DNA of 64,000 nt from Cystobacter fuscus. GTDB lineage: Bacteria; Myxococcota; Myxococcia; Myxococcales; Myxococcaceae. The notes under the pieces were generated by a model. It was not told the DNA's origin. It searched no databases and saw nothing but the letters and a program-made list of their open reading frames with translations. This document shows, piece by piece, positions 18,115 through 23,921 of the stretch; the stretch's first letter is position 1, and each line of letters begins with the position of its first letter. A program made the translations under genes and the position numbers. The stretch is from assembly GCF_002305875.1 (NCBI RefSeq), contig NZ_CP022098.1:1922001-1986000 (forward strand), given 5' to 3'.

Positions 18115-20457
18115 TCAGCGGATCGTCCAGGTGGTGGGCGCCACGCGGAAGGCCGTGTTCTCGCTCCCCACGAGCGAGAGGCTGGAGGCGCCCGCCTGCA
18201 ACGCGCCGGCGAGCGTGGGCACCACCCGGAACCGGGCCGTGAAGGGCTCGGCGGCGCCGCGCGGCGGCAGGGTGAGGCTCACCGCTCCGTCCTCCACGTC
18301 GTAGGCCGTCACCCGGCCCTGGCGCACCAGTTCCTCCAGGCTCGGGCGATCCACCTGCACGCCCGCGGGCAGCTCCTGGCGCAGCGTGAGCTCCAGGCCC
18401 GCCGGAGAGGCCGCCTGGAGCGTCACCTCCACGGGCATCCCCACCTTCGCGTCCGCCGCGACCTTCATGGCGAGCTCCAGTCCATGGCCCGGTTCGCTCG
18501 CGCGCCAGGGCACGCGGGCGGCCAGCGTCAGGGAGAAGCCCAGTCCCGGCACCGCGGGCTCCGCGCGCACGCTCCAGGTGTGCGGGCCCGCGGAACCGGG
18601 TGCCTCCGCCTCCAGCGCGAGCACCTCGCGCAGCGCCTTCGCGTCGAAGTTCCCCTCCGTTATCGGCTGGCCATCCCGCTCCAGCACCACCCGGACTCGA
18701 GAGGGCAACGGCTCCTTGAAGAGGGCCAGCACGGCCTGGAGTCCGGCGAGGTTGGCGCGCCCGTCACCCCAGCCGGACTCGGGCCGGTAGTCCGCGAGCA
18801 GCGAGGTGCCCAGGTCCGCGAGCGGCGCTTCCTTGTCCTCCACCAGCGCCAGTACCGCGAGCGCGGTGGCCTCGGCCTCCGAGGGGATCCGTCCATCCGC
18901 TCGCACCACGCCCGCTGGTACGGGGAGGTACGCCGCGCCATCCGGTCGCCGCTGGAGCGCCTCACGTACCCGCCCGCGCAGCGTGTCCCGGACCGAGCCG
19001 GACACCCCTCCGCTGGCCAGCACCGCCGCCGCCGTGTAGCCGTCCCGGATCCGTGACAGGGCGCGCTCGAAGGCACCCGACGCGCGCGCCCCGAAGGCCG
19101 AGGCCCGTCGGAGGCCCGCGTCCGTGCCCATCCCAGCGCGCACCACCCGGGTGCACTCCGCCGTGGCGACCAGCAGCCGCTGCAACGTCCACCCCTCGCC
19201 GCCCTGGCACGTTCCATCCGGGCGCTGGGCCCGCGCCACCTGCTCGGACAGGCGCTCGCCGAGCCGTGCCAGCACGGGATTGCCCGGGTGGGCCAGCGCC
19301 GCCTCGGCGAGCAGGGCCGCCGTCGCCACGTCCGGCGCGCGTCCGGCCTTCAGCACCCGCTGGCCCGCGAGCATCGACGTCTGCTCGAGCGCGCGTGGCT
19401 CCACCGTCCCGCCCAGGCCCTGGAGCAGCGCCGGGGCGCGCCCGGTGAGCAGCAGCGCATAGGCATCCTCGGCCCCGCCCGCGCGGCCGGGAGCCGCCGC
19501 CAGCTCCGAGCGCAGCACGCCCAGCGCTCCGGGGAAGACGAGCAGCCGCACCCGCTCGCTGCCCTCCACTGGGGACGGGGGCCCCACCAGCTCCAGTGTG
19601 CGCGGCGCGGCCAGGGTGCCTCCGCGAGTCTCGCGCACCAGTTGGCCCGTGGGCCACACGTCGAAGCCGCGCTCCACCGAGTCCGCTCCCTCCAGCGCGG
19701 CCCGCACCGTCACCGGCCCCGGCCTCGCCGCGCGCAGCGTCACGTACTCCACCACGCTGCCCGCCGCCGGCACCGTCACCGTGCGCGTGCCGCCCTCCAC
19801 CTGCGCTCCCTGGGCCTCCACCTTCAGCGCGCGCGTCACCGCGGCGCCCGTGGTGTTCACCAACTGCACCGGCATGCGCACCACGTCTCCGGCCCGCAGG
19901 AAGGCGGGCAACACCGGATCCACGTAGGTGGGCAGCGAGCTCGCGAAGGTGCTCACCGCCCCGGCCTGAGCCCCCGAGCGCGAGTGCGCCAGCGCCAGTA
20001 CCCGCCAGTGCGTCAGCCGGTCCGGCACCTTCACGGGGACCGAGGCCTCGCCCGACGCGTCCGTCACCACCAGGGGCTCGAAGAGGAACGTCTCGGGGAA
20101 CCACGCCCGTCCCGATGGGGCCGCCGCTTGCTCCTGCCCGGGCGCGGGGGGAGGTGGGGGCGGGGGAGGGGCCAGTGCTCCCACGGCCATCCCCTTCTCC
20201 CTCATCCCGAAAGCGACCGGAGCTCGTTTGGCTGCTCCTCCGCCCCCTGGGATGGCGTCTGCCTCGATGAGGCCCCCCCTGAGCTGCTCCATGGGGAGGG
20301 TGGCGGGAGCGGCCTGGGGGGGTGCTTCCGCCAGCATCAGCTCCTCCGGCTCCGCCCGCACCGGTGAGAAGCTCGGCATGAACAGGATGCTCGAGAACAG
20401 GGTCAGCAGGACGCCCACGACGAGGCCTCCCGCCCCCACGAGGATGTAGCGCTTCAT
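18115..20457 (-). CDS. Alpha-2-macroglobulin family protein, C-terminal half (no thioester)
   Basis: 780 residues from the ATG at 20457, which overlaps the stop of the upstream partner (ATGA); the longer frame adds ten residues lying in that gene. An N-terminal anchor (YILVGAGGLVVGVLLTLFSS) is followed by a Pro-rich linker, then the A2M bait-region/ANATO-like boundary and the MG/A2M core (WFPETFLFEPLVVTDASGEA, then VKVPDRLTHWRVLALAHS), which is diagnostic. The helical thioester domain spans about 330-600, but the C-x-E-Q thioester motif is missing: the position reads PGRAGGAEDAYALLL. The C-terminal receptor-like MG domain follows. It is likely to form one complex with the upstream half in the periplasm. 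Confidence 0.85.
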   Translation of the reverse strand: MKRYILVGAGGLVVGVLLTLFSSILFMPSFSPVRAEPEELMLAEAPPQAAPATLPMEQLRGGLIEADAIPGGGGAAKRAPVAFGMREKGMAVGALAPPPPPPPPAPGQEQAAAPSGRAWFPETFLFEPLVVTDASGEASVPVKVPDRLTHWRVLALAHSRSGAQAGAVSTFASSLPTYVDPVLPAFLRAGDVVRMPVQLVNTTGAAVTRALKVEAQGAQVEGGTRTVTVPAAGSVVEYVTLRAARPGPVTVRAALEGADSVERGFDVWPTGQLVRETRGGTLAAPRTLELVGPPSPVEGSERVRLLVFPGALGVLRSELAAAPGRAGGAEDAYALLLTGRAPALLQGLGGTVEPRALEQTSMLAGQRVLKAGRAPDVATAALLAEAALAHPGNPVLARLGERLSEQVARAQRPDGTCQGGEGWTLQRLLVATAECTRVVRAGMGTDAGLRRASAFGARASGAFERALSRIRDGYTAAAVLASGGVSGSVRDTLRGRVREALQRRPDGAAYLPVPAGVVRADGRIPSEAEATALAVLALVEDKEAPLADLGTSLLADYRPESGWGDGRANLAGLQAVLALFKEPLPSRVRVVLERDGQPITEGNFDAKALREVLALEAEAPGSAGPHTWSVRAEPAVPGLGFSLTLAARVPWRASEPGHGLELAMKVAADAKVGMPVEVTLQAASPAGLELTLRQELPAGVQVDRPSLEELVRQGRVTAYDVEDGAVSLTLPPRGAAEPFTARFRVVPTLAGALQAGASSLSLVGSENTAFRVAPTTWTIR

Positions 20458-23400
20458 GGCGACTCCCGGGTGACCCATGCGCCCCAATTCTCGATGTCCT
20501 GGGGCAACCGCGTGCCGTTGACCACCACCGCGCGCGGATCCGTGAGGGCGAGCAGCTCCGAGGGCAGTTGCGACAACCGCAACCGGCGGCCGAAGGCGTC
20601 CGTGACCTTCTCGCCCCGCTGCTCACAGGCCGCGAGCGCCTGCTCCCATTGCCGCGCGAGGCCCTCGGGCGACAGCGTCTCGCCCTCGGGCGCGGACTCC
20701 TCCCAGGCGCGCACCCGCACCGTCAGCTCCGAGAGCACCCGGTAGAAGGGCTCGGTCAACTCCACGTCGGGCTCGAAGGGCGACCGCGCCGAGAACGACA
20801 GGGTCCGTTCCCCCTCGGCGCGCGAGGGCACGCTCCTCACGCGCAGCAGCGTGGCGGCGGCGGCGTTGGCGCCCCGGATGCGCCCCATGACGAGCGCCGT
20901 GCCGTCCAGCACCCCGAAGGCGGGCGAGGTCATCGAGGGCGTGGGCCGCATCCCATCGAGCGCGTCCGCGTCCGGCAGGGCCACGAGCTGCGACAGGCTC
21001 TCGTCCACGCCGAAGAGGCCCACCGCCGCCGGGCCCTTGCGACCGTCCACCCACGTGTTCACCTGGAGGTGGGCCAGCTCGCCGGGGGCGTAGGCCGCCT
21101 TGTCCGACGCCACCTCCAGTGAGAGCCGCGCCTGGGGCGCCACGTACACTCGCGCCACGGCCCCGTTCCAGGACGCCTCGGCCCAGCCCTCGAAGCTCGT
21201 GGGCAGGGAGAAGCGCGCCACCGGTACCGGCCCCGTCCGCTCCACCTTCGTCCGGAGCGTCCTGTCTCCCGCCTGGAGTTCGAGTTCCTCGGGCAGTCCT
21301 CCCGTGAAGTCCGGGCCGCGCAGCAGCTCGATGCTCACTTCCCCTCCAGTCTGGGCCAGCACGGGCGAGGCGCGCAGGCGCGTGGGGGGCAACCGCGCGG
21401 GCGACGCGATCCACGTCGTCGAGCCGAGATCCCCCGTCGCGTCCTTCGCGCTCACCTTCAGCTCGTAGCCCAGCATCGTCGTCTCCTGGGGAACGGCACC
21501 CTCGGCGGACCGGGAAGTGGGCTCGGCGGTGAAGCGCACGATGCCCGTGGCGTGGCCGGGCTCCTCGCTCAGCCGCATCCCCGCGAAGCGCGACTGGATG
21601 CAGGCGAGGTGGGGGGTGGGCAGCGAGTCTTCCTGGGGGCGTGGGGACGTCCAGCCCACTTCCACCTCGCGCTTGCCCGGACGCGTGCGCCAGATGAGCA
21701 CCGAGGGCAGTGGCGCCGCGAGCGACAAGTCCGCCGGCAGGCACTCGCGCGCATCGAGCGCCGCGCGGTGCAGCGCATCCTCGAGCCCCTCGCTGGTACT
21801 GGCTCCGAGGAGGTCGCGCACCTCGGTGACGAGCAGGGGCAGTCCTGGATCCCTCAGGCTCAGGGTGAGCCCCAGCATGCGCTCGCGACCGGGAGGCAGC
21901 GAGCGCGTGCGCAGGATCGCGGCGGCGCAGGAGGCCAGCGGCGAGTCCTCCGCGGTGACGTCCACCACCGCGCCTCCCGCCGTCACGCGCAGGCCGAGCT
22001 CCACCTCGAAGGAGTCCGCTTCGGGCGACACGAAGCGGGCGCAGGGGCGCAGGGGCTCCAACCACCGCTCCACGGCGAGCTGATCCTCCAGCGAGGCGTC
22101 GCCCTCGTCGGCGAGCAGATCCCTCATCTCCTCGAGCTGCACCGGAGGGGGCCGGGGAGCGGGGCGCACCGGCAAGGCGGGCAGCACGACGTTGACGGGC
22201 GGGCCCGGGTCGAGCTGGAAGACGGCCACGCCGTCCTCGTCCGTCACCGCGCGCACGCCCTCGTCGTTCGGATCCCACGCCCGGCGCACGGTGAGCTCGG
22301 TGCCGGGCAACAGCCGGCCGGCGGCGGTGGTGGCCCGCAGGTAGACGCGGTTGCCGTAGCCGTCCACCAGGCCGTCCGACTGCTCCGTCACCGCCGACAC
22401 GGAGAGGGCGTCCTCGGTGAGCAGCACCGAGGTGGCGCCCTGCACCTGGTCTCCCGCCGGGTCCGTGGCGGACAGCGTCGCGGAGAGGGTGGCCTGGCCG
22501 CGCAGATCGAAGGGCACGCGCGGCAGTGGGAGGCGGAAGCGTCCCGCGGCGTCCGTGCGGGCCTCGCGGGGCAGTCCGTCGCGGGCGTTCGCGTCGAGCC
22601 ACGCGGTGGGCGGAGGCCAGCGGCCCGAGGCGCGCCAGTCCACCTTCACGGTGGCGCCGGCCACGGGGGCTCCCGAGGTATAGAGGACCCGGCCCTCGAC
22701 GAGGGGCGACTCGCCCGCGCGCCAGAAGGGCCTGGTGCCCTGGGCCTCCACCTGGAAGCGGGGCAGGGTGAAGGGCTGCACCTGGAAGGACACCTCGCCG
22801 CCGGTGTCTCCGCTCACCCATTTCACCTTCCAGGCGCCGGTGGCCGCTTCGCGGTCGAGCGGGAACTCTCCGGACACCACGCCCCAGGGGCCCGCCGGCA
22901 TGCGCTGCTCGAGGAGGACCTCTCCCGAGGGATCGGTCACGAACCAGGAGCCCGGGCGCCCATCGATGGGAGCCAGGTCCCGGGCACGCAGCACCACGGC
23001 GCGAAAGCGCACCACGTGGCCGGGCTCATAGAGGGGCCGGTCGGTGAGCACCTGGATGCGGGCGGGGGCGTAGAGGGGAAGGGGGGCGTCCACGGTGTCC
23101 GTGCCCAGCGGCGAGTCGACGCGGGCACGCAGCCGGTAATCCCCGTCCGGCAGGGCGGGCAGCTTCACCGAGGCGCTCTGGGCGAAGCCGGGCTTCTGCC
23201 GCTCCCAGGGACCCTCGATGGGAAGCGGAGTCTCCTTGCCCTCGGCATCCACGAGGAAGAGGGCGGGCTCCAGGCGGCGCACCGCCGATTGCAGCGTGCC
23301 GCCATCCCGGGTGACGCCATGGGCCAGGGCCCCGACGGTGACGCTCCCCGTGGATTCGCGGGCGAGTCCCCGCGCGTCCAGGGTCACGGTCTGTCGCATG

Positions 23401-23543
23401 CGCCCGTCCGGACACCGAGGCATCTTCACCCCCTGGAAGATCCAGGTGGACACGCAGTCGTCCACGGCCACCCACCAGATGCCGATCAGGATGACGAGCG
23501 CGGCGATGCCGAGTGTGAGCCGGCGATTGGAACGAATGTTCAT
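20454..23543 (-). CDS. Alpha-2-macroglobulin family protein, N-terminal half (MG domains)
   Basis: 1029 residues, starting at an ATG behind GGGAGGG. A single N-terminal membrane anchor (LGIAALVILIGIWWVAV) is followed by MG domains: DRPLYEPGHVVRFRAVVLRA is the classic MG2 signature, then WFVTDPSGEVLLEQRM and GAWKVKWVSGD (MG3/MG4). An unusual insert at about 460-690 contains LRVTAGGAVVDVTAEDSPLA SC-type residues resembling the C-terminal energy-coupling repeat of myxobacterial AgmX-like proteins. It ends with the AYAPGELAHLQVNTWVDGRK segment and GLFGVDESLSQL, after which the next gene continues the fold. In most bacteria these parts are one polypeptide. Bacterial A2M is a periplasmic protease trap; without the thioester the mechanism here must be non-covalent. 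Confidence 0.85.
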   Translation of the reverse strand: MNIRSNRRLTLGIAALVILIGIWWVAVDDCVSTWIFQGVKMPRCPDGRMRQTVTLDARGLARESTGSVTVGALAHGVTRDGGTLQSAVRRLEPALFLVDAEGKETPLPIEGPWERQKPGFAQSASVKLPALPDGDYRLRARVDSPLGTDTVDAPLPLYAPARIQVLTDRPLYEPGHVVRFRAVVLRARDLAPIDGRPGSWFVTDPSGEVLLEQRMPAGPWGVVSGEFPLDREAATGAWKVKWVSGDTGGEVSFQVQPFTLPRFQVEAQGTRPFWRAGESPLVEGRVLYTSGAPVAGATVKVDWRASGRWPPPTAWLDANARDGLPREARTDAAGRFRLPLPRVPFDLRGQATLSATLSATDPAGDQVQGATSVLLTEDALSVSAVTEQSDGLVDGYGNRVYLRATTAAGRLLPGTELTVRRAWDPNDEGVRAVTDEDGVAVFQLDPGPPVNVVLPALPVRPAPRPPPVQLEEMRDLLADEGDASLEDQLAVERWLEPLRPCARFVSPEADSFEVELGLRVTAGGAVVDVTAEDSPLASCAAAILRTRSLPPGRERMLGLTLSLRDPGLPLLVTEVRDLLGASTSEGLEDALHRAALDARECLPADLSLAAPLPSVLIWRTRPGKREVEVGWTSPRPQEDSLPTPHLACIQSRFAGMRLSEEPGHATGIVRFTAEPTSRSAEGAVPQETTMLGYELKVSAKDATGDLGSTTWIASPARLPPTRLRASPVLAQTGGEVSIELLRGPDFTGGLPEELELQAGDRTLRTKVERTGPVPVARFSLPTSFEGWAEASWNGAVARVYVAPQARLSLEVASDKAAYAPGELAHLQVNTWVDGRKGPAAVGLFGVDESLSQLVALPDADALDGMRPTPSMTSPAFGVLDGTALVMGRIRGANAAAATLLRVRSVPSRAEGERTLSFSARSPFEPDVELTEPFYRVLSELTVRVRAWEESAPEGETLSPEGLARQWEQALAACEQRGEKVTDAFGRRLRLSQLPSELLALTDPRAVVVNGTRLPQDIENWGAWVTRESP

Positions 23544-23597
23544 CGACCCTCCCGTGGCCAGTCTACGCCACGCGGTGGGGCGGTGTACCTGGGGGGC

Positions 23598-23921
23598 TCA
23601 ACCCTGGCTGGCGGTCATGAACGCCACCTGCCGCTCCTGCAGGAACGCCAGACACTCCATGAGGATGGCGGGGGGCGGGAACACGGGCGCCTGGGTGAAG
23701 CTCACGAACGCGCTCCTGACGCCCTCGTAGAGGGCGGGGTCGAACGGCGCTCCCGGCTGGGTGCTGGCGAGCAGCTCGTGCATCTTGCGCAGGACGGGCT
23801 CGGCGGTGCCGGTGGCCACCTTCGCCTCCTTCTCCAGGGTGGCCAGCAACTGCTCCCGCCTGGCCACCAGCTCGGGGGGCTCGATGGGAAGCGCGGAGGA
23901 GTTCGGAGTCGTCTGCGACAT
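23598..23921 (-). CDS. Small hypothetical protein
   Basis: 107 residues from the ATG at 23921 (the frame extends further but its upstream part is Pro/Arg-rich and overlaps the divergent gene). Mostly helical (PELVARREQLLATLEKEAKV, AILMECLAFLQERQVAFM), no signal peptide or known domain. It lies 54 bp upstream of the macroglobulin pair on the same strand and might be the first gene of that operon. Confidence 0.65.
   Translation of the reverse strand: MSQTTPNSSALPIEPPELVARREQLLATLEKEAKVATGTAEPVLRKMHELLASTQPGAPFDPALYEGVRSAFVSFTQAPVFPPPAILMECLAFLQERQVAFMTASQG

What the first reader, a model, noticed from the sequence alone, without database searches (positions are those of the whole stretch)
18115..23543. 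Alpha-2-macroglobulin split in two genes and lacking the thioester
The family's N-terminal MG domains and C-terminal core lie in separate genes whose start and stop overlap by 4 bp (ATGA), so the halves are translated together, and each carries its own N-terminal membrane anchor. The expected C-x-E-Q site is absent in the helical domain (PGRAGGAEDA instead). A two-chain, double-anchored, non-covalent trap would differ from the single-polypeptide thioester traps of other bacteria. An AgmX-like insert in the first half is also odd.
Basis: partly seen in the sequence, partly recalled or inferred. Interest (0 to 1): 0.55.

Follow-up and report, generated by a model that had tools for sequence, protein, structure and literature searches.

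The report
Two-gene, thioester-less bacterial alpha-2-macroglobulin
Myxobacteria-like bacteria build a relative of the blood protein alpha-2-macroglobulin from two overlapping genes, broken where the usual protease trigger sits and lacking the usual reactive bond, so it probably holds its partners rather than snapping shut and bonding to them.

Summary
Gene A (23543-20454, minus strand) carries MG1-MG5 and the first half of MG6; gene B (20457-18115) the second half of MG6, MG7, CUB, TED and MG8. In 41 of 41 junctions read, across five numbered families of the phylum, they overlap by 4 bp (38 ATGA, 3 GTGA) behind a ribosome-binding-like site. CxEQ is absent in 40 of 40 B rows; 20 of 21 single-chain relatives keep it. 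The break lies in the bait-containing segment of MG6, so MG6 is probably completed in trans, as in two-chain complement C3/C5. B's MG6 half is the most conserved segment of either protein yet is modelled poorly alone; so is A's, but A's conserved MG2 is too, which weakens that argument. Thioester loss alone is known (MagD, type II); an inherited two-gene break at the bait was not found in seven paper searches. The insert in A is AgmX-tail-like (one module 87%, the other 32%). Function is inferred: most likely a constitutively assembled, non-covalent envelope binding protein; the classical cut-the-bait trap is unlikely.

The parts
20454..23543 (-). gene A: N-terminal chain (beta-chain-like), 1029 aa
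   Evidence: ORF and translation; Pfam MG2 and CarboxypepD_reg over the cut-off, A2M_BRD below it; first and last aligned residues 290-935 of E. coli A2M 4ziq and 23-647 of C3 8oq3
23439..23543 (-). A residues 1-35: N-terminal hydrophobic helix (signal anchor?); invariant C30 and C44
   Evidence: helix 2-35 in the model, low confidence; invariant columns in 27 rows
22146..23402 (-). A residues 48-466: MG1-MG4 (bounds set by hand)
21492..22145 (-). A residues 467-684: insert of two alpha/beta modules of the same H-E-E-H-E order, each with two invariant Cys (C501/C539, C601/C648); module 1 resembles the AgmX/PglI tail
   Evidence: model, invariant Cys, hhalign 87.5% and 31.6%; no convincing match in 21 single-chain relatives
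20808..21137 (-). A residues 803-912: first half of MG6, up to the bait position
   Evidence: A2M_BRD match 799-853, below cut-off; pLDDT blocks 22-37; mean pairwise identity 0.60
20457..20807 (-). A residues 913-1029: conserved, mostly helical tail at the bait position, no family match
   Evidence: no convincing match in 21 single-chain relatives
20463..20467 (-). GGGAG, ribosome-binding-like site of B inside the end of A
   Evidence: a GGAG, GAGG or AGGA word in 41 of 41 junctions
20454..20457 (-). ATGA: start of B overlapping stop of A
18115..20457 (-). gene B: C-terminal chain (alpha-chain-like), 780 aa
   Evidence: A2M domain over the Pfam cut-off; the family matches 27 of 27 members at E 0.1 or better
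20368..20457 (-). B residues 1-30: export signal or transmembrane stretch (lipobox-like in some relatives)
   Evidence: by eye and pattern
20119..20367 (-). B residues 31-113: Pro/Ala/Gly-rich linker, the least conserved segment
   Evidence: a GltG-like Gly-rich stretch in 4 of 27 relatives, not in this protein
19924..20118 (-). B residues 114-178: second half of MG6, most conserved segment of either protein
   Evidence: 0.82 mean pairwise identity, 31 of 65 invariant, 27 rows; pLDDT under 50 up to residue 175; aligns from the end of the bait of human A2M
19654..19923 (-). B residues 179-268: MG7
18508..19653 (-). B residues 269-650: CUB interrupted by TED (TED about 310-582)
   Evidence: TED against the C5 TED 9y6c, Z 23.0, rmsd 3.3, 263 aligned
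19462..19491 (-). B residues 323-332 PGRAGGAEDA: place where the thioester CxEQ would be
18118..18507 (-). B residues 651-780: MG8 (receptor-binding-domain-like)
   Evidence: (C5 match, E 5.5e-5)

Best explanation
A member of the alpha-2-macroglobulin/complement superfamily that is made as two polypeptides. Shown: two ORFs with a 4-bp start/stop overlap kept in all 41 junctions read across a phylum; the break lies in the segment of MG6 that carries the bait region; no thioester; each half starts with its own signal-like or anchor-like stretch; the single-chain thioester relatives lie on the other side of one branch of the tree. Inferred: ribosomes that finish A restart on B, giving near 1:1 amounts; each chain is exported; in the periplasm the two halves of MG6 complete each other, giving a non-covalent heterodimer with the domain order of a C3/C5 beta+alpha pair, held at the membrane by A and, through a disordered linker, by B. 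Because the bait strand is already open and there is no thioester, it cannot be triggered or bond covalently in the usual way; I think it most likely works as a permanently assembled binding or scaffold protein of the cell envelope that holds its ligands (proteases or other hostile enzymes, or envelope partners) non-covalently. Confidence in the two-chain architecture with MG6 in trans about 0.75 (lowered from 0.8 on re-checking, because A's conserved MG2 is also modelled poorly); in the function about 0.35.
For: Split inherited: 28 distinct junctions (after dropping L056, a copy of L035) plus 13; 41 of 41 with a 4-bp overlap, 38 ATGA and 3 GTGA, 27 distinct junction strings. A and B occur in the same 25 of 59 genomes, own included. 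B relatives in 87 of 195 genomes of the phylum, own included, in 5 numbered families (my count of printed rows at 287 bits or more; a few partial). Place of the break: B aligns from the end of the bait of human A2M (bait bounds recalled); A's aligned range ends at E. coli A2M 935, whose disordered bait stretch is 923-942 (PMC4498604; same numbering assumed); on one profile of 15 single chains plus YfhM, A covers 188-695 (99.9%) and B 887-1612 (100%), colinear, with the bait between; in 20 of 21 single-chain relatives both profiles match one ORF in that order; the bait domain is inserted in MG6 (PMC12939704). MG6 in trans: MG6b has the highest conservation of the segments (0.82), MG6a 0.60, yet both are at pLDDT under 50 in the separate models, while TED is at 78-94. 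Fold matches of A include C3 beta chains, those of B C5/C4/C3 alpha chains. CxEQ absent in 40 of 40 B rows, present in 20 of 21 single-chain relatives. Two-chain rows are one side of a branch, 100/100.
Against: No complex was predicted or measured. The models rest on 7 and 9 sequences (pTM 0.32 and 0.48), and A's MG2, a whole and conserved domain (0.70), is also mostly under pLDDT 60, so poor modelling of the MG6 halves is weak evidence by itself. No neighbour conserved across lineages points to a function. Export and anchoring were judged by eye and a simple pattern. The pair is absent from one same-genus genome, G002, 98% complete, so it is dispensable. B's linker could itself be a protease target. 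The branch to the single chains is long (1.48 + 2.51 changes per site) and many single-chain rows have odd letter make-up, so the order of break, thioester loss and insert is unknown.
Confidence: 0.57

Rival explanations
1. It is still a working non-covalent protease trap of the MagD kind: B's disordered linker, which sits at the bait position, is the bait, and cutting it releases the cage from the membrane or closes it.
For: MagD lacks the thioester and still traps TEV after bait cleavage (PMC5764988, passages). B's linker is long, Pro/Ala/Gly-rich and the least conserved segment (0.18), and it enters MG6 where the bait leaves it.
Against: In ECAM the proposed trigger is the untethering of an intact bait strand (PMC4498604, passages); here the strand is open from the start. 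No mag-type neighbours were recognised in the 11 loci read by eye. Low conservation is also what a plain tether would show.
Confidence: 0.25
2. A and B are independent proteins that share ancestry but do not form one molecule.
For: Each has its own signal-like start; no complex has been shown.
Against: One domain is divided between them; they overlap in 41 of 41 junctions read and occur in the same 25 of 59 genomes (in G005 and G006 on different contigs of fragmented assemblies); MG6b is the most conserved segment yet is modelled poorly alone.
Confidence: 0.1
3. A frameshift at the overlap makes one fused chain.
For: The two frames overlap and B's open frame runs upstream of its start.
Against: By eye B starts with a signal-like hydrophobic stretch or lipobox in the 41 rows, with a ribosome-binding-like word in 41 of 41; I saw no slippery heptamer at the window's junction.
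Confidence: 0.03
4. Sequencing error or decaying gene.
For: None beyond the two frames.
Against: The same overlap in 41 of 41 junctions, with A at 44-90% identity in the set; many invariant residues.
Confidence: 0.01

Closest known systems
Type I bacterial A2M (ECAM/YfhM, Sa-A2M)
   Same: MG domains, bait position inside the domain equivalent to MG6, CUB-TED, C-terminal MG; A aligns to 4ziq at Z 13.3, rmsd 22.9, 379 aligned
   Different: YfhM is one chain with a lipoprotein-like start and CLEQ, beside pbpC; insert and tail of A were not found in 21 single-chain relatives (YfhM itself not tested with those two profiles)
Type II bacterial A2M (MagD, YfaS)
   Same: no thioester; likely non-covalent action; A's profile scores slightly higher on a YfaS piece (41.8 bits) than on YfhM (29.9 bits)
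   Different: MagD is one chain with a bait region in a six-gene operon (PMC5764988, passages); here two genes, bait interrupted, no such operon recognised. MagD protects against some T6SS peptidoglycan effectors (PMC12663445, passages)
Complement C3/C4/C5 (two-chain)
   Same: beta chain resembles A, alpha chain resembles B; division inside MG6 (C3 detail recalled); C5 also lacks the thioester (recalled)
   Different: C3/C5 are cut from one precursor and carry an anaphylatoxin domain (recalled); here two genes, with a tail, signal and linker instead. The likeness is not exclusive: the best rows for B by Z are TEP1 (24.6) and CD109 (23.9), C4/C5 following
AgmX/PglI C-terminal tail (NF033768) of myxobacterial proteins
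   Same: module 1 of the insert, second Cys aligned, hhalign 87.5% over 53 columns
   Different: internal insert rather than a C-terminal tail; module 2 only 31.6%; 1 of 27 A proteins at E 0.046 by HMM

Membership tests
A2M/complement superfamily | MG2 and A2M domains by curated profile | tested here: met
   PF01835 60.8 bits (cut-off 32.8) in A, PF00207 53.9 bits (cut-off 21) in B
A2M/complement superfamily | TED inside CUB followed by C-terminal MG | tested here: met
   TED against C5 TED Z 23.0, rmsd 3.3, 263 aligned; C5 alpha chain over B 179-780, Z 22.4, rmsd 26.7, 474 aligned
Type I bacterial A2M | CxEQ thioester motif | tested here: not met
   absent in 40 of 40 B rows
Type I bacterial A2M | pbpC neighbour | tested here: inconclusive
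   gene starts read by eye in 11 loci, no pbpC recognised; neighbours were not run against a family library
Type II bacterial A2M (MagD) | lacks CxEQ | tested here: met
Type II bacterial A2M (MagD) | one chain with intact bait region | tested here: not met
   split at the bait segment
Type II bacterial A2M (MagD) | magABCDEF-type operon | tested here: inconclusive
   no neighbour conserved across the lineages seen; judged by eye in 11 loci, noisy table
Complement C3/C4/C5 | two chains divided inside MG6 | tested here: met
   place of the break by profile and fold alignment; MG6 pairing itself not shown
Complement C3/C4/C5 | anaphylatoxin domain and single precursor | tested here: not met
   two genes; no anaphylatoxin family among the Pfam matches listed
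AgmX/PglI tail | profile similarity and paired Cys | tested here: inconclusive
   87.5% and 31.6%; Cys pairs invariant in 27 rows
A2M protease inhibitors | traps a protease after bait cleavage | not testable with these tools
   needs purified protein

The most novel reading that the evidence does not exclude
A macroglobulin that has turned its bait into a membrane tether: the chain is opened genetically at the bait, A ends in a new tail, and B reaches the membrane through a disordered linker from the same point. Damage in the envelope would cut the tether rather than a bait and so release or rearrange an already open cage, a sensor-and-release device instead of a snap trap, with the AgmX-like modules perhaps linking it to the envelope's TonB-like machinery.
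Probability: 0.13. Interest if true: 0.75.

Novelty: new variant of a known kind. Interest (0 to 1): 0.55.

Why it matters
The trigger of A2M is explained by cutting the bait strand. A natural A2M, kept across a phylum, that is born with that strand open and without the thioester asks directly which of the family's actions need trigger and bond. It also gives a bacterial counterpart, made by gene structure rather than by proteolysis, of the two-chain form of C3/C5, with one domain apparently completed by two separately exported chains.

Tried and rejected
Sequencing error, pseudogene and fused frameshift product: rejected from the 41 junctions. Operon context as a clue: neighbours differ between lineages; loci of Myxococcus, Corallococcus and Citreicoccus share two downstream genes, others do not. 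The all-against-all table was noisy with shadow ORFs and its output was cut; I use it only for that statement. Pseudopilin (T2SSG) origin of A's tail: suspected by eye, no support (only PDB match E 0.031, a TetR regulator; Pfam only DUF802 at 0.073 in 1 of 4 tails). NCBIfam: no family for this A or B at E up to 1. GltG matches in 4 of 27 B proteins lie in a Gly-rich linker and are far below that model's cut-off (16-32 against 650 bits), so probably composition. Modules 1 and 2 against each other: 0.7%, so the idea that they are repeats of one another rests on the order of helices and strands and the Cys alone. Profile match of insert or tail in single-chain relatives: best E 0.068 and 0.13, none convincing. 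Fold rows were judged by family and aligned range, because multi-domain alignments have high rmsd.

Rows dropped or not used: L056 (copy of L035); L043 (B frame broken in a MAG) from the B alignment and tree, though its junction is counted; L036, L039, L040 (A not on the contig stretch) from the junction count; L103, L104 (partial); L143 (no CxEQ, no A match) from the tree; L144 (an arbitrary 1 kb filler); L045 and L046, two of the three other A2Ms of this genome (CxEQ seen), which had no B-profile match; L050 (see Noticed in passing). So one search gave 21 single-chain proteins out of 24 loci searched. The profile used 15 of those 21 plus YfhM. Junctions were read in 36 of the 87 genomes with B, plus 5 named contigs; the other genomes were not read.

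Papers: passages only were read of PMC4498604, PMC5764988, PMC12663445 and PMC12939704; all others were seen only in search listings. 'Not found in print' rests on these seven searches of an open-access library.
Full report
What is there. On the minus strand gene A (23543-20454, 1029 aa) is followed by gene B (20457-18115, 780 aa); stop and start share ATGA. A has MG2 over the Pfam cut-off and a bait-region match below it; B has the A2M domain over the cut-off. The ORF tool's longer B start (TTG 20487) is not the likely one: the ATG at 20457 has GGGAG in front, and a start at that place is present in all 41 junctions read.

The split is inherited. Relatives of A and of B were found in the same 25 of 59 genomes, own included; one of the same-genus genomes, G002, has neither. 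B relatives were found in 87 of 195 genomes of the phylum, own included, in five numbered families (my count of printed rows at 287 bits or more, a few of them partial). Junctions were read in 36 of these genomes and 5 named contigs: 28 (one duplicate locus dropped) and 13. The overlap is exactly four bases in 41 of 41: 38 ATGA, 3 GTGA, with a GGAG, GAGG or AGGA word upstream in 41 of 41 and 27 distinct junction strings. No fused version was seen among these 41. A pattern scan of public genome contigs gave nine loci, eight with myxobacterial titles.

Where the break is. B's profile aligns with human A2M from the end of the bait (bait bounds recalled). A's model aligns with E. coli A2M 4ziq 290-935, first and last residue only, Z 13.3, rmsd 22.9, 379 aligned; the disordered bait stretch of that protein is 923-942 (PMC4498604, passages), and the bait domain is inserted in MG6 (PMC12939704, passages). 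In 20 of 21 single-chain relatives the A and B profiles match one ORF in order with the bait-containing segment between them. Against a profile of 15 of these plus YfhM, A covers 188-695 (99.9%) and B 887-1612 (100%). So the gene break divides MG6.

Structure. Separate models (7 and 9 sequences; mean pLDDT 64.7 and 62.2; pTM 0.32 and 0.48) give A as MG domains with an alpha/beta insert and a mostly helical tail, B as MG7, CUB, TED and MG8. For A, Foldseek leads with C3, A2ML1 and CD109 and VIA-align with bacterial A2M and then C3; for B, Foldseek leads with C5 alpha chains and VIA-align with TEP1 (Z 24.6), CD109, C4 and C5; B's TED matches the C5 TED at Z 23.0, rmsd 3.3 over 263 residues. The low-confidence stretches include both MG6 halves (A 802-912, B up to 175), although MG6b is the most conserved segment of either protein (mean pairwise identity 0.82, 31 of 65 invariant) and MG6a is at 0.60. 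The simplest reading is that each half needs the other. Against it: A's MG2, a complete and conserved domain (0.70), is also mostly under pLDDT 60, so this argument is weak for A and better for B, whose TED reaches 78-94 with the same alignment.

Thioester. 40 of 40 B rows lack CxEQ, with four gap columns at the site; 20 of 21 single-chain relatives have it, as do the three other A2Ms of this genome. All 40 two-chain rows are one side of a branch against 20 single-chain rows, 100/100, on a long branch, with odd letter make-up in many single-chain rows. The root, and so the order of loss, break and insert, is open.

Insert and tail. A residues 467-684 hold two modules of the same helix-strand-strand-helix-strand order, with Cys pairs 501/539 and 601/648 invariant in 27 rows. 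Against the AgmX-type tails of this genome (8 over the cut-off), module 1 scores 87.5% and module 2 31.6%; against each other they score 0.7%. The tail 913-1029 is conserved but matches no family. Neither was convincingly found in 21 single chains.

Anchors. A starts with a hydrophobic helix, with invariant C30 and C44. B starts with a hydrophobic stretch in most rows; a strict lipobox pattern hits in 4 of 41, and a few others look lipoprotein-like by eye. Both halves look exported, but topology is not shown.

How it most likely works. Coupled translation, separate export, assembly through MG6 into a two-chain molecule with the plan of C3/C5. Since the intact bait and the thioester are gone, I expect non-covalent binding by a permanently assembled molecule in the envelope. 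The nearest functional lead is type II MagD, which traps a protease non-covalently (PMC5764988, passages) and protects against some peptidoglycan-cutting type VI effectors (PMC12663445, passages). That lead is by analogy: MagD is one chain in an operon not recognised here.

Known or new. Superfamily and thioester loss are known. A genetically two-chain member broken at the bait was not found in the seven paper searches listed, in an open-access library only. I rate it a new variant of a known kind. On re-checking, confidence in the architecture went from 0.8 to 0.75, the overall figure from 0.6 to 0.57, and the 'independent proteins' rival from 0.08 to 0.1, because of the MG2 result.

Noticed in passing
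L050 (G039:C1:11000-21000), frames at about 1060 and 4725: A different A2M that keeps a CNEQ site seems to be read in two overlapping frames that break near the bait; by eye the second frame has no export signal, so a frameshift or sequence error is likelier than a second two-gene form.
   Followed up: partly
   Followed up: partly
upstream of A, window 23544-23618, and relatives: A GGC[AG]TA[GC]A word shortly before A, perhaps a promoter -10 element, in the window and 10 of 26 relatives.
   Followed up: no
L047, L066, L067, L068, linker of B: Gly-rich linker resembling the one in the gliding protein GltG.
   Followed up: partly
L043:3518-3922: In a Myxococcaceae MAG the B frame breaks after 135 aa; probably an assembly error.
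   Followed up: no
G000 C1:3231197, C1:4677423, C1:10501314: Three single-chain A2Ms with CxEQ lie elsewhere in the same genome.
   Followed up: partly
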